From Branchiostoma floridae (Eukaryota > Chordata > Leptocardii > Amphioxiformes > Branchiostomatidae), in NCBI RefSeq assembly GCF_000003815.2, contig NC_049979.1, forward strand, positions 25,232,058-25,296,057: a stretch of DNA of 64,000 bases, read 5' to 3'. The notes beneath the pieces are model-generated. The model was not told where the DNA came from. It saw only the letters and a program-made list of their open reading frames with translations, and ran no database searches. Every line of letters starts with the position of its first letter. Position 1 is the stretch's first letter. Shown piece after piece: positions 3,227-51,719 of the stretch. The position numbers and the translations under genes were made by a program.

Positions 3227-5073
3227 TCGGAACCAGTGAACAGGTTAACTGTGCGTAGTACGTAGTGGCTACACGGTGTTACAGCACGCATGTGCACTCA
3301 CGTACTGCCTCCACTAAAACTGGGTAGGAGTCCGTTAGTTTCTTATTTGTCTGACGTAGGGACCATGCATTTTTAAACTGCAGTATGGGTTTAGACATGG
3401 GTGATCATGGGTATCCAAGAGCCTCAATACTAACGTTACCCTCAATACTGGCCGGCCGTGTACTTTATGAAGCTATAACCGGCCAGTGTGTCTGTAGTGG
3501 TAGGGGTGGAGGTTGTCATTGTGCCAATGTATGTGTGTGTTTGTGTGTCCATGCGTGTGCGTACGCGTGTGCGTGCGCGTATGTATGTGAAATCATTCCA
3601 CCGGCGTGTATATCATAGTGCACATTTGCAGCGACATGAAACATCCCCTTATCAATTTTTAAAGATTGACATTTGCCATTTTAGAGAAATCACAGTCGCT
3701 TCTTGTCACTAGAAAGGAAACATTAAACATTCATGCCAACCAGAAGTAGTCACGAGATGAAAAGATCTGAACCTGCGATTGAAACACATTGCTCGATGAC
3801 AGAGTATGCCTACTGCAAAATATAAATGTACTACTTTTCTTCCATTCCTCTTAACCTTATCCATAAAGCAAACATCAGAACAAATTGAATATAAACAGAG
3901 ATAGAATGTTTAGTGACTATTCTCTTGTTACTGATGCTTAGAAACCCATGCTGCATGTAATGCGAAAACATAGCATCAGAGGTAAATGTAATGTTTGAAA
4001 GAATCATCCCCAACCTCTACTTTGGATCCGTCTGTCTGTCCTGGGTCTGATTCTGGTGGGTGGTGGACAGCAAGCATCTGTACAGACATCTTTGATTACT
4101 TCCCGTTAGGATGCGTTGGAAAACAAATCTCATAAAGGTAACTCACTGAATATTTGAGACGCACCCTGTCTCCTATCACGACTGTTATTGTACTCCTAAA
4201 GTAACGGGCCGCCCGACTATTCCGAGCCGCTGGTAGAGAGAACTTGTGTAACATAGGCAACCTGGCTCAGGAACAATCATATTCTAGAACACGGTCATCC
4301 ACAGACACTGCGTCAATAGGGCAAATCAACGTATAAAATGACTTCCAGATCACTGATTCTGACCTCTTTGCCTTTATTCTAGGGCCAGAAGAAGGCATGG
4401 CATTAGATGGATTTGAGAGAAGCAATTTGCACAGCATTTATGGAGCGATTCACAGTAATAAAAGATTTCATAAAATTGATTATACCTACCTATAATTGAT
4501 TAATTGATTATGGAGTAACCCAATGAAACATCGCTCTGTTACCACGGACTGCTGTAACAGTGAAGTTCTACCTGTAACTTTGCAATCCTGACCTAAAAAG
4601 GCTACGGTACGTTCGGAAGTTGCTGTTGTTGGTGAGAAGGGGCTGTTTGTGCCTTACCTGTGTCCGTCTGTGATTAGGAGTGTTTTATGAAACCGATCCT
4701 TCTTCTGTGCATGTGCGGAACATCCGGGGCGTTACGATTTTGCCCCGGCGCCGCAGTATTGCGGCAAATTTATTTTTTTTGCGAATTTTTCTCTCCACTT
4801 TTCCCTCGCGGACGGTGCGACTCCCTCTCAATATGTGACTGTAAGAGGGATGGTATTTCGGAGGATACTGCTGCGAAATGGCGACTTTGGGGTTTTTACA
4901 TATATTATTTGAAGGTGTCCTGAAATGGCATTTGAGAAGTGTTTTGAAAATAGAATGCTTTGAATTTCTTTTGAAGTGTTGAATGTAAAGCGGGCCTAAG
5001 ATGGATATAACGTCGGTCGTTGGGGATAACGGCAATCAAATGTCTATCGTCTGAAGAACGACCATAAAGATAA
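3227..5073. other. No gene seen; probable 5' flank of the LRRC74-like gene
   Basis: Contains a TG-rich microsatellite at about 3526-3592 and otherwise unremarkable AT-rich sequence. A minus-strand AATAAA (+ strand tttatt) near 4375 could serve the SUZ12 transcript, but nothing here defines the end of that gene. Confidence 0.5.
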
Positions 5074-5321: not shown

Positions 5322-8117
5322 GCTTAAACGGCTATCCCTAGTTACATATTTCATTTAAAAGTGGGATCGGTGAACATCAATTCCTTTTAAAAAAAATTCA
5401 CATTCTATTTCTGACGATCGAGCTTGACATTTCACAACCTGAAACGCCTTGTAGTTCTCAGTTGAGCTGTTAGGTGGAGCTGCTGTCTGATCACATCTTG
5501 ACGGAATGTGTATTTCTTACTCATGCATGCAGCCTCAATTGCCAATGAATGAAGACCCCAAATGGCATAAAATGCTTCCTGATTTTATTCCGATATCTTA
5601 CAAATCCCGTTGTGTACAAAATGTATCATAATCCGCCTTTCCACCCATGGAACACACCAGGGGAATCTGACAACATATATTGTACGAGCAACCCCCAGAT
5701 ACTTGTACACATTGGAGCAATGAAAGCTAATATATGGACTACTAGTATATTTGTACCAGATCATTTAGAAATCTTCCAATCAGTAACCAATGTTGATGGC
5801 CTAGAAATGGTAATCACCAAGCAGATGTGATGAGGGAAATTCGTAATGTTTCTAAGTGCTCTGATAGTATTAGAAAAAGGAGGGAAAGAGCGAGAAAGAG
5901 AGCGAACAAAAGAGTGAGAAAGAACAAAACAAAGACTTGAACAAATAATTGTTTACCAGTTGGGAGGATACCCTGAGTTTTGTCACAGTACTTGGGGTGA
6001 CAGGTCTGTTGTTTTCCTCTGATATACAAACATAAATGTGGGCTTTGGTACACTAGTGGCTCAGCTGAAATCAACCCTGACAATGTAATGTTTTGAGGAA
6101 CATACCACTGACATCAAACTGCAAGATGGGAGTATATTATGACATGTACAGGAAATCTAATGTTACAGATATAGCTGGATACATAACTAAAGAACTGTTT
6201 GTAAAAATTGTGATAGCCCAGCAACCTAGAAATTTAGATATATATTTCCCTATCCCAAATGTTCTCTACCTCAGAGACTACCAAAAAAGGACACCACTAC
6301 CAGATGACCAGACATCATATAACCTGTACATTCCTTCTTGATCATTTTGATAATTGTCAAAACAAATATACTTCTGGGCAAGGACAAATACCTTTTGCAT
6401 CATGAAATACCTTACTAGCTTATTTCAGAAGAAAGATTTAAGGTGATACAGTAACCTATATAAGCACCTATACAGTACAACTATATTGACAAGCTTGGCC
6501 AGACAAATAATCTAGCATCCTATGACTGAAGACAGAATTTCTTTATACAAAGACCATTTCCTTTTTACATACAACGTCGCTTTAAAGCTATCTACTTTAG
6601 GGTTTACATTAGACACTCCTTTCTCATGTTCTATCAACATAGAAACAATTTCTATACATGTATCTTCATTGTATAATCAAAATATCTTTGTGACCAAATG
6701 CATCTATGTACAAATTGAGTATTGGAATGACTGCATCATACCATTACTTAAGCAACAACAAAAATTCTGTTGGCCTTTGGGTCACTTTTTCATTGAGTTC
6801 ATTTTTTGTTGCAAGTTGACGCCAGTAACTTAACAACACAACAGTTAACAGTTTCCATAATCATAGGGTAATGTTTCACCTAGATAGCATCACATACAAG
6901 TAACTATACATGTCAACCTGTTACAATTTTGCATTTTCCCTCCCCATCTTATACAACTGAAGCTATTGCAATAGAAGGGTGACATTTAAAATTGTGTCCA
7001 TTTTGACCAACAACCGACAATGACAACAAGAAACTACAGACTAGGCTAAAGCAGCGAGAATATAAACTATGAAAGCGCTTTTCTTTTCCATTTCATACGA
7101 CTATCAGAGCCCACACATACAGACAATGACTTTCTGGTGTCTGTATGCACTGTTTATGACTACAGAAATACAAGTCTACACTTCTCCTGTAACAAAAAGG
7201 CACATGGTTGGTCCACATCCCCTGATTACACATTGTAGAAAAATATCTGCATCACAGTCTCTTCACCTAGGGGGTCATGGATAAATGTCAAACATGATTG
7301 GTTGTTTTCTATTTTTCTATTTTTTTGTAATACAACTGTCTATAGAAGCATGCACAAGTTCATGTCTGTGTGTGTGTGTGTGTGTGTGTGTGCGCATGAC
7401 ATTTCTGTATACAAACAAGTCATCTTCCTTAACTATTTTCTGACACAAAATGGTATCATCTAAGTCACATAAGGAATGTTTATCCTAGCATGGGTTGTTT
7501 AAGAGCAATAATAAAACGAAATACACCAAAACAGTGCCTTAGTGCTACATAGCAATGTTGTCCAAGTCCTAAAATATCCTGACAGTTTGACGTGTGTTCA
7601 AAAAAATATGGTTTTGGTACATGTCTGTATATGTAACTAGAAATCTGAGAGGGCAACTTGTGAAAATCTCTAATTTAGAGATTTTCATCTTGTATATACA
7701 AATGATTACTGAAAGCCTTGGTATTGATTATTTGGCCACAAGTGTCTTCATTTAGTTCTCTGATTTTGTTGTAACAGCTGAGATATAGTGGCACCGACGG
7801 AGGCATGCAAAAATACTTCAACGCAGGTGGCAAGAAGTGTATTGTAATAACTGTACTTGATGCCAAAATATGCAATGCAATGTTTTAGGAATACACTGCA
7901 AGTACTGAAATTTTCACAATGTTTGTACACTTCGTTCAGCCATAACACCTTGAACAAATGTTCTTTCATTGTGTCAGTTCCATCTCAGCCTCAAAGATAT
8001 AGAAAGCTCAAGATTTCAACCTGATGCAAACTTAAATGAATGTACAGTACGTAGACTGTTGTGATCGATACTGCGAGTGCTAAATGACAACAACCATGTG
8101 GCTTCGCTCTAGAGACT
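5322..8117. other. Downstream of SUZ12: probable 3' UTR and intergenic DNA
   Basis: No conserved protein is encoded. The region follows the SUZ12 stop codon in the minus direction and probably contains its 3' UTR. A (TG)n microsatellite lies at about 7367-7392, and another + strand tttatt near 5583 is a possible minus-strand poly(A) signal. Short open frames here look random. Confidence 0.5.
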
Positions 8118-26800: not shown

Positions 26801-29800
26801 GTAGGTGGAAGAAAATAACAAGAGTGAAGTAGAGTAGAGTTTATAGTCATTTCTACCAAGTTTTACAGCCAATCGTACAGGTGCAGTTAGCGTTGTAGGA
26901 TTTTAAAACACCAGTGTAAGTCTCACACTCCACCAAACAGATTTCCTTGTAGTGAAATGGACCATTGGTATGAGTCATACTGAATCAGGTCCAGGTTCAG
27001 GTCCGGACCTGAACCGAACCTGGACCTGAATTTTCTGTACCGGCACCGAGCCCTACTGTCTACTGTACCATTAATATAAATTGACACTGCAAAACTACTT
27101 GCAACTTCAACAGGTTGCGATGCGCAATGTGAAAGATTCATGAACAACATGAAAGCATTTCTTGCTCAAATACATGTATGTTCTTGATATCGCTGTGTCA
27201 AAACGTCAATCATCAAAACGTCATCCATGAGTTTGAGCACTAAAAAAAGTGTCTGAAGTTAGAGCATCCCCTGTTATAAGGGGCATGTGCATAGAAATAT
27301 TACTCCTAGAGTATTTTGCTATAATGCAAAAAACTAATTGTGTTATTTTGTGCTGATCACTTTAACAATATTTTTGTTTTTTTCTGATAGATCATGAGCC
27401 ACCCTACATCATTGCAGTACTACCCAGGTCAGTCTAATCTGCATAAGATACTGTAAATGTATTCAAGTTCGCAGGGATTTATTTTACTGTAGTGGGAAAA
27501 AGGGCTTTTTGCGGTGGTTTTAAGTTCGCGGTAGCACCATGCTCTGTAGTCTCTTACTGCCTTTGAAAAATGTTTGCGGTGGTTTTAAGTTCACGGTGAA
27601 TCGGCCACCACAAAAACCGGGAACATTAAACCATCGCGAAAGTTTCTGCATTTACAGTACTGGCATCTATTACCAGTACTGTACTTCAAGTGTTCATTTA
27701 CCTTTTCTTAATCTTAGGCCATATTGATTCGATTATATGGATGACATCATTCGGGAAACCCCAAACTAATGGGTGTTTGTGAAAAAAAAGTTTGGCAAGA
27801 AAAAAATGTTCATGATGAAATCTAAGTGGTCTGAAGGTAAACACAGAGTATGGTATACTGAACGACAGATGCTTCATTTTTGTTCTTTGTATATCAAGAC
27901 TTACATGTATTAAAGAATCCCAAAATCAAAGTGTAAACAAAAAAAACAAGTGAAAATGAAAGAATTGGTAAAGCTACAACATGTTGTGATGCTACCTTTA
28001 GGCACATCGAAGTGCGAACTGTGGAGCCCAGACTTCTGGTCCAGACTATGGAGTTACCCAGCAGACCAAGGTTCATCTGCAGTGGAAGGTCTGTTGGCTT
28101 CAGCTTACACATGGACATCACCAATCCCTCTTAAAGTCAGAAAGGAGCTCCCTAAGGAATGGTTCTTAAGATCAGTGTTTTTGGGAAAGGCTACTTAGTT
28201 TCCCACCCAAAGTGTATCTTATGTCTGAATGTCTTCATGTAACTCAAGTTGGCATTACCATCTTATACCACTGAGCCTTCAAAAACATATTTTCTTTAGC
28301 CTGAATGGGACTTAAAGCTGTCTGCAACCTTTCTGTGGTCATACAATCCCTGTAATGAAATCTTTGTTTTTCATCTAAGCTAAGTATTGACTCATTACGT
28401 TGGTTAGAAAGTTGTTTGTGTGGGTTGCAACTGGGACTGATCAATTAGATAATGTCAGGCTCAAATGGAACGGCACTAAGATGACTGTATGTCATTCTTT
28501 ACAAGTATACTAAGGTGTAGGAAAACAAATGTTGTGTTTTCTGTTTTAGTCCTGAAAAAATTATGGTCGGTAGGTAGGTTTTTTCCCTTGCACTATTACA
28601 ATACAGTTGAACAAAGTAAACTAAAATGCATGAGGACACTTGTCTTTCAATGNNNNNNNNNNNNNNNNNNNNNNNNNNNNNNNNNNNNNNNNNNNNNNNN
28701 NNNNNNNNNNNNNNNNNNNNNNNNNNNNNNNNNNNNNNNNNNNNNNNNNNNNCCTGACCTCCAGGTCATTTGGGGATAGGGTACTTTCTGCCCACCCCCT
28801 AAGAGTCTAGGGTCGGCAGTTTTTCTAGGGTAGGTAAGGAAACATTTTTTCCTAAGCCTAAGTTCTTGGATGTAAGATGTGTTGTGTTGCAACCCTTGCC
28901 TGAGTTATGTTCTAAAGAAGGTTTCGAGTTGAAGAAATTATAGTATACACACTCAACATAAAAAGTCCTGAAACAGAAATTTGATCAATCATAATGCTAT
29001 CCACTTTCAAGTCTGGTTCGAGCGGGAGCTCGGCCAAAGTAAAGTAAGTTTACTGTTATGATTGATTACAATGACATTATCAAAAATCATACAGACATGA
29101 CAACTTTCGGGTAAAATTCCTAGGCTAGTGCATTAGTTCGTATCAATATTTTAATGTGGATTTTCTTGTCATTTTAAAAGATTATTTTCTGATACCTCTT
29201 GTTGCAGCAGTCATGTTTATGTAGCCTCTCAGAACTATGTCTGGAAGATGGTACCTGTTCCCATCACAGCGCAGATCAAACAGCTCTTACAAGACAAGCA
29301 GTTCGAACTGGCTCTGCATCTTGCTGTATGTATTCTTAATCGTTAATGTTTTGCCTGCTACATAATTTTAGTAGTCCTATAGCTTAAGGTTGAAATGATG
29401 AATATGATTTGAATATCATATTATCAATATGAAATGTTTTATTCATTTACTTCTTCAGATTTTCAGAAATGTTCTGAGAGGATCCGGGAACAGGAATATT
29501 TTCAGCATGACATGATCTTCTGAAATAATTGTATAATGTTACATGAGATTGTACTATTATTGGAATCATTTTAATTTCGTACTTTTGGTCCATTACTTCA
29601 GACATTGAACTGAACTGCACTGCTTTAGGTAAATTGATGCAATCAACTGAAGCTACCGATATTTCTATTCCAAGCCATACAGCCTCAAAACTGATGTATT
29701 CCTCTACTATTCACCACAGTTTTTGACTCATGAGCACGCTAATGTGCACAGAAAAAAAATAATTGTCTCTTTCCAGAACTGCGATGTACTATTTTGTGCC

Positions 29801-32800
29801 TGAACTGTTATATGCTACGGTAACCTTAATTTACTCCCAGTGGGTTTAATGGTTTTAAGTTCGCGGTAGCATCATGCACTGTAGTCTCTTACTGCCATGG
29901 AAAAATGTTCGCAGTGGTTTTAAATTCGCGTTGAAGCAGCCACCCCAAAAACCACGAACATTAAACCACCGCGAAAATTTCTGCATTTACAGTATCTTTC
30001 TTCAGCACATCCAGGCACATGAAGGTTAGGGGGAAGGCCCTTTGGATGTAAACAAACCTTATGTGTAAATGTTGCAAACACATGTAGACAAAGAATTGTT
30101 TAGAAATGAGGGACCTTAAACTTTGACCTTGGACCACAATACATCATTACTGTGCATGTGCACTCAAAACTGTGAGATGGCGTATTATCGTGAACTTACT
30201 AAGGCGTCCATTATCTCACTAATAAGAACATGACAGACGAAGTGGAGGCAGACAAACAACAGAACATCCACCACATTCAGAACCTGTACGCCTTCGACCT
30301 CTTCTCACAGAGGAGGTTTGACGAGTCCCTCAAGATCTTCTCCAAGCTGGATACAGGTAATATTTTGTGCTAAATGTGGATCCAGAGGGCTAGGGTTTTG
30401 AGTCCTGTTCAGCACGGCTTGATCCAGGCACCATTTGTCCTTCCCGAAGGGAACATAGAGCTGGTTGGTTTTCACTTGCATGGGAGAGGCTTAACTTACA
30501 AAAATGTATCTAGAAGAATTGGGAGTATCCTGGTTTGCTTGATGCCAGCTGTAGCAAGACTTCACTTAACTTCCACTGGACACTCAATTAAATACAGTGC
30601 TGTAAAATGCATATGGGATTTAATTTCGCGGTAGTGGGAAAAAGGACTTTTGTGGTGGTTTTAAGTTTGCGGTAGCACCATGCACTGTTACCGCCATGGA
30701 AAAAATGTTAGCGGTGGTTTTAAATTCGCGGTGAAGTGGCCACCGTGAAAACCGCGAACATAAAACCACAGCGAACATTTCTGCATTTACAGTATCATGT
30801 TTCACCTCATTTCACTGTTACCTTTCAGACCCAGCCCAAGTGATCGGCCTGTACCCTGACCTCCTGCCCCATGATTTCCGTGCACAGCTGGCCTACCCCT
30901 CCAGCCCTCCGGATCTGTCCGGTTCTGAACTGGAGAAGGGACTCCTCGCACTCATCGACTACCTTACACAGGTGTGCAGGCCTCCAGCTGATCAGTGTTT
31001 TCTTCTTTAATTGTCTCCATGTATGGTGGTTTTGTTTTCGGTGTGTTTGGATGTTCGTGTTCTTGTGTGCCTGTAGTTATTTGAATACAGTAGTATTGAA
31101 TCACAATTAAACAAGGCATAGTCTTCTTTTATTTGTATTCTAAGAGCACCTGTACACATTTTCTTAGCTAGACTATATGCTTAAAATGTATAACAACAAT
31201 GAATTTTGCAATATGTATCAAATTGAATTGTGAAATTTTTGTGATTTGAAATTCCATTTTAAAACTGCCTTCACTTGGGAATGTATTCCATCTACTGTAC
31301 NNNNNNNNNNNNNNNNNNNNNNNNNNNNNNNNNNNNNNNNNNNNNNNNNNNNNNNNNNNNNNNNNNNNNNNNNNNNNNNNNNNNNNNNNNNNNNNNNNNN
31401 GGTGCTCATTATCGATATCCCCAGTGATAATGAGCTGACTCCCCGGCGATCTGGACTCCGCCCCAAACGTGCGCACAGTGTGTATACACTTGTGTGCATG
31501 GCGTGCGTACGGTTGTCCCTGGAAGTGTGCATGTTAAGATACACGCTTCCGCCACTGTATATGCATGTACATGTAACGCTAGTTCACCTTTATCCATTAG
31601 GTAACCTATATCCGTAGCTTTTAAAAACAGGGTATTTGGGGATATCACGTTAATGAACATTACTTTCAAATTGCAATATTTTCAGGATATTGCAGTTAAA
31701 AACTATCACCCACCGACTTGATGTGCCTAAATACAATGTTTTTAAAAAGCAACGAATATACGTTACCCAACGGATAAAGGTGAACTAGCGTTACATGTAT
31801 TTCATAGCATGCAGTTTTACTTGCATCAAGGGAATCTTTTTTTTTTTTCAGAAAAAAAGTACTTAAAAGCATGTAACTGGACCAATATCTACCCACATTT
31901 ACCAATGGAAAAATCGCACCATAGAAAAATTGATTGGGCAAGTACATGTACATGTACAGTAGGACATGCACATGCCCAATCAGCACTTTCACTTGTCCAG
32001 GGCAAGTGGGCTGATGAACTTATGTATCTCTGTGCTGACGTGATTCTATTTCTATGACTGTTCTTTTTTTGTTTAGCTTCATTTTACTCTCTTTGTGATA
32101 CATGTTGTTGTCTAATACGCGACAATCCAATCTCGTTGGGAGGTCTCGCGAGACTGTAATCTGGCCGCGCGCGCGCGTGATTTGACAGTCGGACGGTAAC
32201 AGCCTTTAGCAGCCCAGCGGCTAACAATGGCTTCTCCCAGCATCGACTCGATCGAGTCAACTTCAGAGATTCGTTGTGCTTTTATTTGGCAACATCCGCC
32301 GGTAAATCGGCATGCCATGAGCAGATAATATTGTTGTGAACCTATGGACTCGATATCGTGCTGTAAATTTGCAAATTTCTGGTCATTTTCACAATTTTTG
32401 ACGGGCGGTTTATGCTTGCTTGTCGTGAGAAAAACCTGCATATAGGCGCGTCGCCTTACTTGTAGTTACTCGGATAAGTTTGGCTCAAGCCGTAAAAATA
32501 TCCCACAAAAGCGTACAAGTACCATCATTGGATCCTTGTAGATCCAAACTCGTAAGACTTTCGGCGATTTTGACCGTAAATTAGTCGATGGCAACATATC
32601 GACTTTGGGAGTTTACGCGTACGTGAGTTGGGGAGGGGGGCGTGTTTCCGCGTATATGCGTTCGTTTTGATCAAGGCGGAGTCACTTTTCCGACTATGAT
32701 TTCAGTTTTCGCCAGATGAAACTCGTGAACATATCGATGTAGGGTCCTTCTGGGTAGAAATCTAGCATGGTTTCAGCGGCTTTGTGGCCGACTTTTTTGG

Positions 32801-35800
32801 TTAACGTAATATGTAATGAGTGGGTGTGTCTGCAAATGTATAACGTTTGGCATTTGCTGTTCTTTTTCAGATCAACGCGTCGCGATCGAAATTCACATCA
32901 GCAGGGAAATACTGCAAATCATATGGATGCAATAGCCGTCAGTCCAAGTGTGTCAATGAAGAGAAAGTGCCAACATGCATCATATTTTTCAAGATCCCCC
33001 CAAATGTACTTGATGATAACACGTTACTTAAGCACTGGGATTGTCTGGTAAAAAGACAGCTCGGAAGGGATAATTTCACCATGAACATGAAATTAGAAAT
33101 GTGCGTTTTTATACTTTTTAACGGGAAATGTGTACATCTACTGCATGTATTTCCAGTAACGCATTCGTGTATTCATTGTGTCCCCATTCAAAGAAAGGAC
33201 TCACGCTAAAATAGGCAGTCCAAAGAACAAAGGTAGACAGCAGTGCAGCACTCAAGACGTCACACAGGTACCACCACCAAGTGCAAGGGAATGTCTATTG
33301 CTGTAACTTAAATTGGGCGGACTTCGTTGTCTACTTTGGCAGGGATAATTTATTCTGCGAACGAATTAAAGTAGACTCAGATTAGTCAGAATATCCCAAA
33401 GCTTGACCACTTTCACAAAACAGCCATACTACCGGAGCTGTTCACTCAAAGAGCCAAAGGAGGTAAGAAACTCTATGGTATGTATGAAGAAAGACTGATT
33501 GTTGATGCAGAGTGTCCAGACCACTGCATCGGCAGAATACAGTGGACTACTATGTATAGCACAGGGAAGTGGACACCTTACGGCTTACCTGTCTTAGGTC
33601 TGAGTAGGACGATGTCTCATTTGTTGCAAAAATTATGCCACACAAAAACAGTCAGAGATGTTGAAAGTTCACATTTTAATACAATGTACATTTGAATGAT
33701 TATGTGTATGAAACATTACCATTTCCCAAAAGTATTACTTATCGGATGCTTATTTTCGTCAGTACTGTAAATGCTGTGAGAACTTGTCTATCATTTGGAA
33801 AAAAACACTAATGATATATACATGTAATTATCATTTCTCAAAAGCATGAGTTGCAAAGCTCTACGAGATCGAGTAAGAACATATGTTAAGACATCTTTTA
33901 TAAAACATGAAATACGGCTATTGCATCCATATGATTTGCAGTATTTCCCTGATGATGTGAATTTCGATCGCGACGCGTTGATCTGAAAAAGAACAGCAAA
34001 TGCCAAACGTTATACATTTGCAGACACACCCACTCATCACGTATGAAGTTAACCAATAAAAAGTTGCCCACAAAGCCGCCGAAACCATGCTAGATTTCTA
34101 CCCAGAAGGACCCTACATCGATATGTTCACGTTTTTGTGGAGTTTCATCCGGCGAAAACTGAAATCATAGACATAGTCGGAAAAGTGACCCCGTCTTGAT
34201 CAAAACGAACACGGAAACACGCCCCCCTCCCCAACTCACGTACGCGTAAACTCCCAAAGGCCGATATGTTGCCATCGACTAATTTACGGTCAAAATCGCC
34301 GAAAGTCTTACGAGTTTGGATCTACAAGGATCCAATGATGGTACTTGTAAGCTTTTGTGGGATATTTTTACGGCTTGAGCCAAACTTATCCGAGTAACTA
34401 CAAGTAAGGCGACGCGCCTATATGCAGGTTTTTCTCACGACAAGCAAGCATAAACCGCCCGTCAAAAATTGTGAAAAAGACCAGAAATTTGCAAATTTAC
34501 AGCACGATATCGAGTCCATAGGTTCACAACAATATTATCTGCTCATGGCATGCCGATTTACCGGCGGATGTTGCCAAATAATAGCACAACGAATCTCTGA
34601 AGTTGACTCGATCGAGTCGATGCTGGGAGAAGCCATTGTTAGCCGCTGGGCTGCTAAAGGCTGTTACCGTCCGACTGTCAAATCACGCGCGCGCGCGGCC
34701 AGATTACAGTCTCGCGAGACCTCCCAACGAGATTGGATTGTCGCGTATTGATGCCAGAATTTGTCTAACTAAAGTTCACTGATGCCTGATTGATGCCATG
34801 TTGATGTCCAATGTTTGTTTTGTCTTCTTTCTCCTTCTTAAAGGAAGTCAGACAGGAGACGATCTATCAGGAAGTCTATCTTATTTTGTATATTTAGAAA
34901 GTCCACTTCTTTTCTTCTCTTTTCCCTTTCTTTGCTGTCTCATGATGCTTCTGTCATCTTTTATACATTCTTTAATGCAGGAGTACATGTACATTGTTTC
35001 ATCGAAGAAGTTGACATTTTTGTAACAGGTTATCCCATTCTTGTACTAAAAGGGTGTTGTTTTTGTCTTTTTTTAGGAAGTTCAACAATTCGTTCCAAGA
35101 AGCAACTAAGTCAAATTATTGATACCACACTGATGAAATGTTACCTTCAGGTAAGAGCTTAAACTATATATGAATTAGGCAATATGTGTACTACATCATA
35201 ACGAAGCAGGGTTTATTCTATTACCCTGACCATGTGCCCCAATACTTACGGGAGCCATTCCTCTGTGACCAGCATGAAATTCTGATACATGTACTACATG
35301 TAGGTCACATGTCTTCAGCTCGCAGACAGAAGGAAAATGTCCAGACTTTGCATGATATACAAAATGACCAATAAACTGGTGGACGTGCTGACTGATAAGT
35401 ATCTAATACCAGCTCAAAAAAGAACAAGAAACAGCCATGACTTCAAGTACCAGAGTTACCAACCTAGGATTGATGTGTTAAAAAATTTGTACTTTCCCAG
35501 AACTATTGTAGAGTGGAATTTGTAGGGGCATAGGGGCCTCTTTTCTAGATAGTTTTAAGGAACGCTTGCAGATAGATGTGCAAAAGTTAGGTGTGACGGG
35601 TCGTTCAGTGTAATATAACCAGCTACTGCCACGCCGCGTGCCTACGAAGCTGGTGTGTTACGCCGAAGGGCGGTTATACCGGCTATACACATGTAGATAC
35701 CGATGCTGGACAGGGCTTTGTGGAAATCATGGTGTCATCTCTCTACAGACTCTGAGAGGATAAAGTGAACTGAACTGTGGTCAAAGATGGCAACAATCTT

Positions 35801-44800: not shown

Positions 44801-47800
44801 TAAGTTAAATTTCTTTTTTATTCTAACACCAAAGTAAGGACTCCATTTCATCTATTATATATGCAATCACAGACCAACTTAACTGTTAAAACAATGTAAA
44901 TCAATTCCCCAGGAAGCCTTTTCTGTTGGCCGTTTTCACTCACTTTCCACACAGTAAAACATGCAGGTGCTGACTGCCATATTGATGTCCTTAATTTACA
45001 TTTCATAACTCAAGCATGCACAGCATACATGTAGGTGTCTGAGAATGCTTGCACCACGATTCATGGAAATGAAAATACAAAATATATCTGTGCCTACCTC
45101 CATGTTGGTTTACATATGACATCACATGAAAAGTCTGTATATCTTGTAGTAAATGACAATGAAAGCTTTGGGTGAATTAGGTTTATTGAAAAGAAACATA
45201 CAAGTGATGATGCTATTTTCTGGTCTATCCTGAAGGTTTATGTGTATCTACTGCGCATGTACCTGAGTCCCCCTGACCCACACAACCTGGGGGTCATGTC
45301 TGGAGCGGTCAACCCCCAGCCGAACGTCCAGGCTGCACTGGACATTCTGATGGAGCATTCCAGCAAGATAGACACTGCTAAGGTGGGTTGTAGGACATAG
45401 ATGTCATATGCACAGTGGTTTGAACCTAGTGTTGCATTCAACCTTTTCAGGTGTTGTTTAGCTATCAGTTCAGAGCTCGAAATACTTTTTTCAGCAAAGT
45501 TTGTCAAGTGGCAACCTGAGTCAAAAGCCAGTTGCGCCATCAATATTTCAGGNNNNNNNNNNNNNNNNNNNNNNNNNNNNNNNNNNNNNNNNNNNNNNNN
45601 NNNNNNNNNNNNNNNNNNNNNNNNNNNNNNNNNNNNNNNNNNNNNNNNNNNNCAGAATTAAGTTGTGCGAAGCAAAATGTGGTTGCATTTTCAAGTGGGC
45701 AAGTGGGTATTTCAAGCCCTGCGGTTCCTTGTATTTGTTTATTTTGTACACAAGTAAACCACCATTAGTTTAACTCACCAGTATTTGTTCAGTAAGGCCA
45801 TGTTGATTTGATTATATGGATGACAATCGTATCCACATCAATTTTCGTCCGTTTCCAAAAAATGTTTCAACCATACTGTAAATCGTACAAAAGCAACAGC
45901 AGATATATGCAGCCATAGATTGAAAAAGAATATCGGACAATATTTGTCATAGAATGTTAAGGTCAACTCCAAGGCCAAAAAGAAAAGCTAAAAGAACAAA
46001 AATGAAGAATCTATTGTTTGGTATACCGTACAATCTTCCTGACCATTTTGATTTCAGTGTGAATATACTTTTTTTTTTACCAAACTTTTTTCATTCACAT
46101 GCTTGCATTAGTTTTGGGGTTCCCAGAGGATGTCATCCATACAAATGTATAATCAAATCAACATGGCCTAGTACAAGCTGTGTAAGACCAGTATAAGATT
46201 AGATCCACTCACACTCTTTTTGATATGTGTGATGGGATGTTAAATGTGCTATCGGTGTGACTTGGGCATGAGCTTGGTTACTACTCCTAGTTACACCTGT
46301 GTGCTTGGCTTAGAACACGAGCCATGGTGAAGCAGTATTGCACTAGCCTGGGTACCATCCGGAAAGTAGTTCGCTCCGACGTTCATTAAATACTATTTAC
46401 AGTCGCTTCTAGCTCTGACATTCACTATACACTATATACAGTCGCTTCTCTGTGTTTCCGTCTGGGAACGCGGCCCATCTTAACGTCTGGAATCGTCTAA
46501 ATTTTGGACGCAGGCGCTGATTGGTCCCTACACATGAGCAAATTATGGAATGGGTTCAAGCGCTCGTTCGAACCGGTGTTCCAACACCGGACAAGCCCTC
46601 AGTCCTGTTGTCATCGAACGAGTGCTCTAGAACCCATTCCTTGATTCACTCATTAACTGATTTTACCACCAAACGGTTTGAATGTGCAAGTCTCCAGATG
46701 GATAGCAGAAGTGAACATAGCAGCGAACTACTATCCGGATGGTACCCAGGCTAGTATTGCACCATTTGCTATTGAAAAATGATTACAGAACTGCCTTGTC
46801 ATATATGGCCACCTGCTGTGTGCACTTGCCTGAGACAGTTGACAAACTTTGTTAGACAACAGTTTATCCTCAACTTTCCTTGATGTACAAATTACCATTT
46901 AACAGCCATTCGAAAATGTTTGATATCAGTCTGCAGTTCAATGTAATTATGCCAGATGGCACGCCTAACTTGTCTATGATGGATGTTTCCTCCACCACCT
47001 TCACCTCAGTCTGTACATGTAGAGCAGTTGATATCAAAGATGCAGTTCCTACAAATTAAACCTGCAAAGGGCCTTTCAATACTTTATAGTCATGCAGTTT
47101 CTTTTCCTTGGACCCACAAAATCTTTTGGCTCCGGTTCGGAATTTGTTTTGCCCGTACCGTGACGTAGTCTGTGAAAATCATAGTTTCCCCCCTTTGTTT
47201 TGGCTACTGTTATTATTAATAGCAGTGTATAATCTTTTGTATTTCCCCAAAAGTCCGTTCTTTGTAGCGTTTTTAGGTGGCGCAAATTTCGTTGTACAGC
47301 CAATACTTCCTGATATTGGAGCACAATAGTGGCAATGCAGTTTCGTCACCTGATCACCCAGATCGTACGTTCTATGTGCATTGTGGGTGTTTTATTGCCC
47401 CCGGAGCTCATGGAAAACGTATCCTCATGGTTTCTTCCTTTTTGCTCAATATACAGAAGAAATCTTGACCTTCATATTGCTATATTAGTCATTATATCCC
47501 CGGAAAATTTGTTTTTTCTGTGTAGCGCATGCCTATAAGGAACGCCCCAAAATTAGCAACATAACTACCCGCTTAGAATCATCATTCTTTCAAAGAAATT
47601 TTTGAAAATGTAACTAGAAAATCAAAAGCCTGTAGGCCTTTTCTGTCCACACGAGTATGCATTCATACAAGGTATTTGTTTCTTTGCACAATGACATAGT
47701 AGCCAGTATACCATTCTCTTATCATGTACACTAACTTGTTATTTGCTATGCTAAATCATTGCTAATTGCTTTAGAAGGCCTGTGACTGGGATATTGGAAG

Positions 47801-51177: not shown

Positions 51178-51719
51178 AGGCCACAGCAAGTAAATTTTAT
51201 GGATGACATCCTCTGCAGACTGCAAAAATAGTGCGATAGGGCGAAAAAAAAACAAGATGGGTGAAAAAATCAAGATGGCTACATTTTCAAAAATAGGCAC
51301 CATAAAGTTGTGATGACTGTTGTAAAAAGAATTAAAGGGACAAAACATGGTATCAGAGCCAACAAGACATTCATTCCTGTATTTAAGACATGTACTGGTA
51401 TGGTAAAAGTGACACTAGTGTGGTAGAATGGCATCACCAACAAAGTTGGTAACCACACTCATAGCTACCATATTGGTATCACTTTTACAACTATCCAATA
51501 AATTTCATTTCTACAACTACAGTCCTGGGTACCTCGCAGGTGTCACTTCTACAAGTACAATTATTAGGCTACAACACAATATAATTTGCTCATTTTGGTA
51601 CTTTATCGTCATGTTGACCATCCCTGCAGAAGAAAAAAATTCTTGTTTTTTTTTCTGAAATCAGGCAAAAATTAATGCGCACGCTGATGTCATCCATAAG
51701 ATTTACATGCTGTGGCCTA
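51178..51719. mobile_element. Foldback element, 'aaggccacagcaagtaaatt' termini
   Basis: Left aaggccacagcaagtaaatt, then ttatggatgacatc; right gatgtcatccataag...tgtggcctt-like complement. About 34-bp inverted ends share 'tatggatgaca' with 45795-46169. Noncoding inside. Confidence 0.65.

What the first reader, a model, noticed from the sequence alone, without database searches (positions are those of the whole stretch)
32114..34749. Giant-arm palindromic transposon whose arms cut through a THAP DNA-binding exon
Seen: nearly identical arms of ~830 bp in inverted orientation around a 976-bp unique middle. Each arm ends inside the same THAP exon, after the first Cys-x4-Cys pair; only the left copy continues into the rest of the domain. 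This suggests the long inverted repeat arose by inverted duplication of one end (5' region, intron acceptor and start of the coding exon) of a THAP-type transposon. The duplication would place promoter sequence and a splice acceptor at both ends, which could drive flanking genes or produce hairpin RNA. The copy sits in VPS39 intron 13. Established: THAP domains are shared by P-element, ISL2EU and other DNA transposases.
Basis: partly seen in the sequence, partly recalled or inferred. Interest (0 to 1): 0.8.

Follow-up and report, generated by a model that had tools for sequence, protein, structure and literature searches.

The report
Amphioxus jumping gene with mirrored ends
A 2.6-kb stretch inside an amphioxus gene is one copy of a disabled jumping-gene family that seems to carry the same end of its parent twice, in mirror image, so it could fold into a long hairpin and might influence its working relatives.

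Summary
Arms of 826 and 836 bp (95.0% over 844 aligned columns) flank a 974-bp middle; both arms stop inside the same THAP exon. It is not an assembly duplication: 31 loci of the family were found and 26 carry both arms. It belongs with ISL2EU transposons: ends are AAT...ATT in 22 of 23 copies examined, and three paralogous empty sites of one copy read AATT, an AT duplication. One parent-type element (L037+L054, 7,840 bp) has THAP, DDE/HTH and convergent YqaJ coding parts and already has 797-bp terminal repeats, each with an apparent leader exon, intron and acceptor. So most of the arm is inherited. What is derived is that the right half copies the transposase side of the parent (arm, THAP start, then YqaJ sequence in that side's order), with internal deletions. 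The leader exons run inward, so the arms are not expected to drive flanking genes, and THAP is truncated. The closest structural analogue found is maize Mu killer; here it is a multi-copy family. Any silencing role is untested.

The parts
32114..34749 (+). Whole palindromic non-autonomous ISL2EU-type element, including the A|AT target bases on the left and AT|T on the right
   Evidence: 31 loci in all, (lower bound)
32115..32116 (.). Left copy of the AT target-site duplication (preceded by A at 32114)
   Evidence: AAT...ATT ends; paralogous empty sites of another copy, L015, read AATT
34747..34748 (.). Right copy of the AT target-site duplication (followed by T at 34749)
32114..32939 (+). Left arm, 826 bp: terminal repeat with leader exon, intron 1, acceptor and the start of the THAP exon
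33914..34749 (-). Right arm, 836 bp: second, inverted copy that also runs into the THAP exon
32227..32268 (+). Remnant of leader exon 1, left arm (ATGGCTTCTCCC...TTCAGAG, MASPSIDSIESTSE); parent donor GTTAGT is ATTCGT here
34595..34636 (-). Remnant of leader exon 1, right arm
32871..33087 (+). Truncated THAP exon 2 (after the acceptor ending at 32870): C-x4-C half present, C-x2-H half lost at the junction
33088..33177 (.). About 90 bp of filler at the junction between THAP exon and YqaJ segment, origin unknown
33178..33913 (+). C-terminal part of the YqaJ gene and the region 3' of it, inverted relative to the left end as compared with the parent
33484..33552 (+). 69-bp insert in the YqaJ remnant, flanked by TATGTA: probably a 5'-truncated 3' tail of a LINE-type retroelement (inferred)
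33912..33915 (.). Second junction: YqaJ 3' region joined to inverted THAP exon with 2-bp (AC) microhomology
35077..35150 (+). Next downstream host exon (VPS39-like, read by eye), showing the element sits in an intron of a + strand gene
   Evidence: Vps39_1 domain in the following exon

Best explanation
The window holds one copy of a young, non-autonomous ISL2EU-type transposon family in which both ends are the transposase-side end of the parent. Shown: a parent-type element in the same genome has 797-bp terminal repeats, each holding an apparent leader exon, intron and acceptor for one of two convergent genes (THAP-DDE transposase on the left, YqaJ on the right). In the palindromic family the right arm runs into THAP sequence instead of YqaJ sequence. 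Read inward from the right end, the right half follows the parent's transposase side in order: arm, THAP start, then (after a deletion) the far end of the YqaJ gene. The DDE exon, the C-x2-H half of THAP and the N-terminal part of YqaJ are gone. Not assignable: the outer ~770 bp of the right arm, which match both parent ends equally. Inferred: the swap arose in gap repair after excision, when one broken end copied from the wrong one of two near-identical 800-bp repeats and then switched template (2-bp microhomology, ~90-bp filler). Inferred: copies are moved in trans by an ISL2EU transposase that binds the shared ends and duplicates AT within AATT. Promoters, if still active, point inward and would give convergent RNAs whose arms can pair; the acceptors face a host transcript in either insertion orientation.
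For: Arms and middle. 31 loci, 26 with both arms. Ends AAT...ATT in 22 of 23 copies examined. Empty sites AATT in 3 of 3 paralogous repeat copies for L015, matching the ISL2EU target A|AT|T in PMC4482050. Parent type L037+L054: THAP 1.6e-8, DDE_Tnp_4 1.6e-50, HTH_Tnp_4 1.4e-16, YqaJ 1.4e-12; repeats 797 bp at 99.4%, exon 2 read INASRSK on the left and INVSGTESV on the right. Window element on the parent: 1-974 to 1-1008; 1065-1371 to 4072-3746; 1438-1802 to 3751-3410; 1808-2636 to 853-1. 21 of 23 right arms read THAP-type exon 2 and none the YqaJ type; the other 2 lack the exact acceptor string. 14 of 18 aligned copies lie within 1.25% of the column majority.
Against: The only parent-type element found is about 10% diverged in the arms, so the direct parent was not seen. 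The outer arm also matches the parent's YqaJ-side repeat equally (1-769 to 7840-7042 and 1858-2636 to 7042-7840), so the end swap rests on the inner edge and on the order of the YqaJ piece. Terminal bases (AC after AT) and repeat length fall outside what PMC4482050 reports for ISL2EU (usually GG, 6-259 bp). The empty sites are from one copy, in repeats only about 79-81% alike; an allelic empty site for L026 was not found. No transposition, transcription or splicing data; none of 40 readable arms keeps the parent donor GT, so normal leader splicing may be lost. The repair step rests on junction anatomy alone.
Confidence: 0.82

Rival explanations
1. The repeats of the direct (unseen) parent had already grown ~57 bp into the THAP exon at both ends, and the YqaJ piece was inverted separately, so no end was swapped.
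For: L037 arms are ~10% diverged from the family; ~800-bp repeats are ancestral; the outer arm fits either parent end.
Against: In L037 similarity stops 12 bases into exon 2, where the two genes part. A plain internal deletion would leave the YqaJ piece on the other strand relative to the left end; here it is inverted, so this rival needs a repeat extension and an extra inversion.
Confidence: 0.08
2. A P-element or Galileo (Foldback-like P) type element, as THAP and long repeats would suggest.
For: THAP domain; Galileo has long repeats and a THAP transposase (PMC3688188, abstract).
Against: The relative's transposase is DDE_Tnp_4 plus HTH_Tnp_4 with a YqaJ partner; the target duplication is 2 bp AT, not the 7-8 bp that I recall for P and Galileo.
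Confidence: 0.02
3. Assembly artefact: the second arm is a collapsed or duplicated haplotype.
For: A run of 100 N lies nearby (31301-31400); amphioxus genomes are highly heterozygous (abstract start of PMC12500494).
Against: 26 of 31 loci on many contigs share the two-armed structure, with the same ends and different flanks in the copies examined.
Confidence: 0.01
4. The family acts as a silencer: inward transcripts fold into hairpin RNA that yields small RNAs against the ISL2EU parent, as proposed for maize Mu killer. This adds to the best explanation rather than replacing it.
For: Same anatomy as Mu killer: both ends from the transposase side, start of the transposase gene in inverted duplication (PMC3440606 passages). 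One parent-type element was found against 31 derivatives.
Against: No RNA data; ~10% divergence from the surviving relative; the low parent count may be drift or age; the copies may simply be efficient passengers.
Confidence: 0.13

Closest known systems
ISL2EU transposons (PHIS superfamily; PMC4482050, passages and section 5 read)
   Same: Target A|AT|T with AT duplication; in the parent-type relative a DDE+HTH+THAP transposase and a YqaJ protein
   Different: Repeats 797-836 bp against a reported 6-259 bp; TIR starts AC, not usually-GG; relative is 7,840 bp against a mean of ~4,840 bp; the window element is non-autonomous with two transposase-side ends
Mu killer of maize (derivative of MuDR; PMC3440606, passages read)
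   Same: Internally deleted, both terminal repeats from the transposase-side end, inverted duplication of part of the transposase gene
   Different: Different superfamily and kingdom; Mu killer is described as a locus that silences MuDR; here a dispersed family of 31 loci found, with no functional data
MuDR of maize (PMC3440606, passages read)
   Same: Two convergent genes with promoters in the terminal repeats
   Different: ~215-bp repeats; here the parent's repeat also holds an apparent coding leader exon, intron and acceptor
Galileo (Foldback-like P element; PMC3688188, abstract read)
   Same: THAP transposase with unusually long terminal repeats
   Different: P superfamily; target duplication of other length and no YqaJ partner (both from recall)

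Membership tests
ISL2EU | AT target-site duplication within A|AT|T | tested here: met
   AAT...ATT in 22 of 23 copies examined; empty sites AATT in 3 of 3 paralogous repeat copies for one insertion, L015
ISL2EU | Transposase with DDE, HTH and THAP | tested here: met
   Met in the parent-type relative L037; the window copy keeps only a truncated THAP exon
ISL2EU | Second ORF with YqaJ exonuclease domain | tested here: met
   Met in L037, YqaJ 1.4e-12; the window copy keeps the part matching residues 149-259 of the 268-aa query, in two pieces
ISL2EU | TIR 6-259 bp and usually starting GG (descriptive range in PMC4482050) | tested here: not met
   797 bp in L037, 826/836 bp here, starting AC after the AT. 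Taken as a reported range, not as a defining criterion
P element / Galileo | P-type transposase and 7-8 bp target duplication (recalled) | tested here: not met
   DDE_Tnp_4/HTH_Tnp_4; 2-bp AT duplication
Mu killer-like derivative | Inverted duplication of the start of the transposase gene | tested here: met
   THAP exon start in 21 of 23 right arms; description
Mu killer-like derivative | Both terminal repeats from the transposase side | tested here: met
   Inner edge and order of the right half; the outer ~770 bp cannot be assigned, as the parent's two repeats are near identical
Mu killer-like derivative | Transcribed hairpin that yields small RNAs and silences the parent | not testable with these tools
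   no RNA data held

The most novel reading that the evidence does not exclude
A mobile, multi-copy counterpart of maize Mu killer in a chordate: each palindromic copy carries two inward leader regions of the transposase gene and, wherever it lands, produces pairing RNA that represses the ISL2EU parent, so the parasite's own repair error spread as its repressor.
Probability: 0.13. Interest if true: 0.8.

Novelty: new variant of a known kind. Interest (0 to 1): 0.5.

Why it matters
It gives a concrete case of how a palindromic transposon forms: a parent with ~800-bp repeats that appear to double as gene leaders, and a derivative in which one end replaced the other. The anatomy matches Mu killer, described as a maize locus, but here as a family of 31 loci found in a chordate, so the idea that such inverted derivatives repress their parents becomes testable with ordinary small-RNA data. 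A parent whose two genes seem to share leader exon, intron and acceptor inside the terminal repeat is itself unusual for ISL2EU: the repeat is about three times the upper end of the range reported in PMC4482050.

Tried and rejected
Pfam on the window fragments gave no THAP or YqaJ, and PDB sequence search gave nothing for the THAP fragment or a VPS39 exon; the relative L037 resolved both domains. I first read L037 as a single-arm ancestor because no self-inverted match was seen in its 9.9 kb; the next 3 kb showed the second 797-bp repeat, so that reading was dropped. The 69-bp insert first looked like a captured exon; its other copies share a 3' end with ACT repeats and differ in 5' extent, so a LINE-type tail is more likely. 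An allelic empty site for L026 was sought and not found: only its two flanks matched in full, the other matches being repeats of the right flank. A second ISL2EU-type locus (L055/L056) has a 306-bp inverted block at 98.7%, but its termini were not resolved, so it is not used as evidence. The ~90-bp filler was not traced (best match 77.8% over 36 bp, E 0.01). Literature searches bearing on whether this is in print are 25 of 961 listed; 20 of 27; 20 of 30; 7 of 7; 10 of 10; no title or abstract start shown describes this element, full texts were not read through, and Repbase could not be searched.
Full report
What is there. The inverted arms are real: 32114-32939 and 33914-34749, 826 and 836 bp, identical at 802 of 844 aligned columns, around a 974-bp middle. 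Differences are uneven. Over 23 copies the median left/right difference within a copy is 1.25% in arm positions 1-480, 5.1% in 480-715 and 1.8% beyond. The left arm runs into an exon reading INASRSKFTSAGKYCKSYGCNSRQSKC..., the right arm into the same exon and then breaks off. The left copy also breaks, before the C-x2-H half of the THAP domain, so neither end encodes a whole THAP domain; Pfam sees none in the fragment.

A family, not an artefact. Arm, middle and THAP-exon searches (lower bounds, as only the best candidates are scored) gave 31 distinct loci including the window; the other 30 were fetched. Of the 31, 26 carry both arms with at least 400 bp aligned of each around the middle; five (L027, L038, L040, L044, L045) are truncated or interrupted in the stretch fetched. 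Of 18 full copies aligned, 14 lie within 1.25% of the column majority, three at 1.6-2.4%, and L025 at 10.3%, perhaps raised by a misaligned insertion. I read the family as young. In a tree shown without support values, left arms tend to group with left arms and right with right, with exceptions (L018, L019, L021), so the two arms had probably diverged before the family spread, with some later exchange. Four copies (L026, L039, L042, L043) carry a variant terminus, AATACGGGACCCTC, at both ends.

Target site. Both ends read AAT...ATT in 22 of 23 copies examined; L022 differs at its right end. Copy L015 sits in a dispersed repeat, and three other copies of that repeat (79-81% alike), one of them in this window at 51547-51719, lack the insertion. 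All three read CATTAATTTT where the filled site reads CATTAAT...ATTCTC, so AATT became AAT...ATT, a 2-bp AT duplication. PMC4482050 gives A|AT|T with AT duplication for ISL2EU (passages and section 5 read).

The parent type. L037 with the adjoining L054 holds a 7,840-bp element with the same AAT...ATT ends. Left to right it has a THAP exon (1.6e-8), a 446-aa open frame with HTH_Tnp_4 (1.4e-16) and DDE_Tnp_4 (1.6e-50), and on the opposite strand a frame with YqaJ (1.4e-12). Its terminal repeats are 797 bp and 99.4% identical. Each contains ATGGCGTCTCCCAGC...TTCAGAG, a GTTAGT donor, an intron, an acceptor ending TTTTTCAG and the first 12 bases of exon 2 (one mismatch); after that the two sides part, INASRSK... 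(transposase) on the left and INVSGTESV... on the right. I read this as two convergent genes sharing one leader, intron and acceptor, all inside the repeat; that the right-hand exon 2 belongs to the YqaJ gene is inferred, and no transcript was available. It is the only element of its own type found: the next DDE match is 61% identical, other matches of 200 residues or more are 47% or less, and shorter fragments reach 71%.

How the palindrome relates to it. On L037+L054 the window element reads: 1-1008 forward; about 90 bp of filler; 4072-3746 and 3751-3410 reversed (YqaJ C-terminal part and beyond, with a 69-bp insert, probably a LINE-type tail, between them); then 853-1 reversed. Read inward from the right end, this is the parent's transposase side in order (1-853, a deletion, 3410-4072). 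A plain internal deletion keeping the YqaJ-side end would show the YqaJ piece on the other strand. Of 23 right arms, 21 read the THAP-type start of exon 2 and none the YqaJ type; the other two (L011, L039) lack the exact acceptor string used. So one end appears to have replaced the other, although the outer ~770 bp of the right arm match both parent repeats equally. Repair synthesis that entered the wrong one of two near-identical 800-bp repeats would do this; the 2-bp microhomology and the filler fit such repair. That step is inference, and the direct parent was not seen: the family arms differ from L037 by about 10%.

What it would do. In the family the parent donor is gone (0 of 40 arms in which the exon end could be read keep GT; 6 more not readable), while the exact acceptor string remains in 38 of 46 arms and a nearby GTAAAT, absent from L037, in 42 of 46. 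Inward transcripts from both ends would be convergent and could pair. Because each strand carries one inward acceptor, a host transcript meets a sense acceptor in either orientation; here the host is a VPS39 gene on the + strand (Vps39_1 2.4e-13; neighbouring exon by eye). None of this was tested with RNA.

Comparison. By target site and by the coding capacity of its relative it is filed with ISL2EU. It departs in repeat length and first bases (PMC4482050: 6-259 bp, usually GG). The authors of PMC9179366 could not detect ISL2EU in amphioxus although they note that Han et al. had (passages). P and Galileo are disfavoured by transposase type and target duplication (abstract, 39, 89). The nearest structural analogue found is Mu killer: an internally deleted, partly duplicated MuDR with both terminal repeats from the mudrA side (PMC3440606, passages); MuDR repeats also hold promoters of two convergent genes (same passages; PMC3310237 seen only as a search listing with the start of its abstract). 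No title or abstract start listed describes this element; Repbase was not searchable here.

Noticed in passing
L037:3712 to L054:1650 (G000:C1:10579211-10587050): Parent-type ISL2EU element, 7,840 bp, with 797-bp terminal repeats that appear to serve as shared leader exon, intron and acceptor for two convergent genes.
   Followed up: yes
L055 and L056 (G000:C18:12769300-12777150): Second ISL2EU-type locus (DDE 61% identical to L037, YqaJ 53%) with a 306-bp inverted block at 98.7%; termini unresolved.
   Followed up: partly
window 31568-31799: Inverted repeat with 60-bp arms, 90% complementary, 112 bp apart, about 300 bp left of the element: MITE-like.
   Followed up: no
window 35304-35525: Open frame ending ...FPRTIVEWNL that looks, by eye, like the C-terminal end of a CR1/L2-type reverse transcriptase.
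   Followed up: no
window 51547-51719: Copy of a dispersed repeat that serves as a paralogous empty site for palindromic copy L015.
   Followed up: yes
L026, L039, L042, L043: Copies whose terminus changed from CGCGACAATC to CGGGACCCTC at both ends, pointing to exchange between ends or to matching with a transposase variant.
   Followed up: partly
window 28653-28752, 31301-31400, 45553-45652: Three runs of exactly 100 N, probably scaffold gaps.
   Followed up: no
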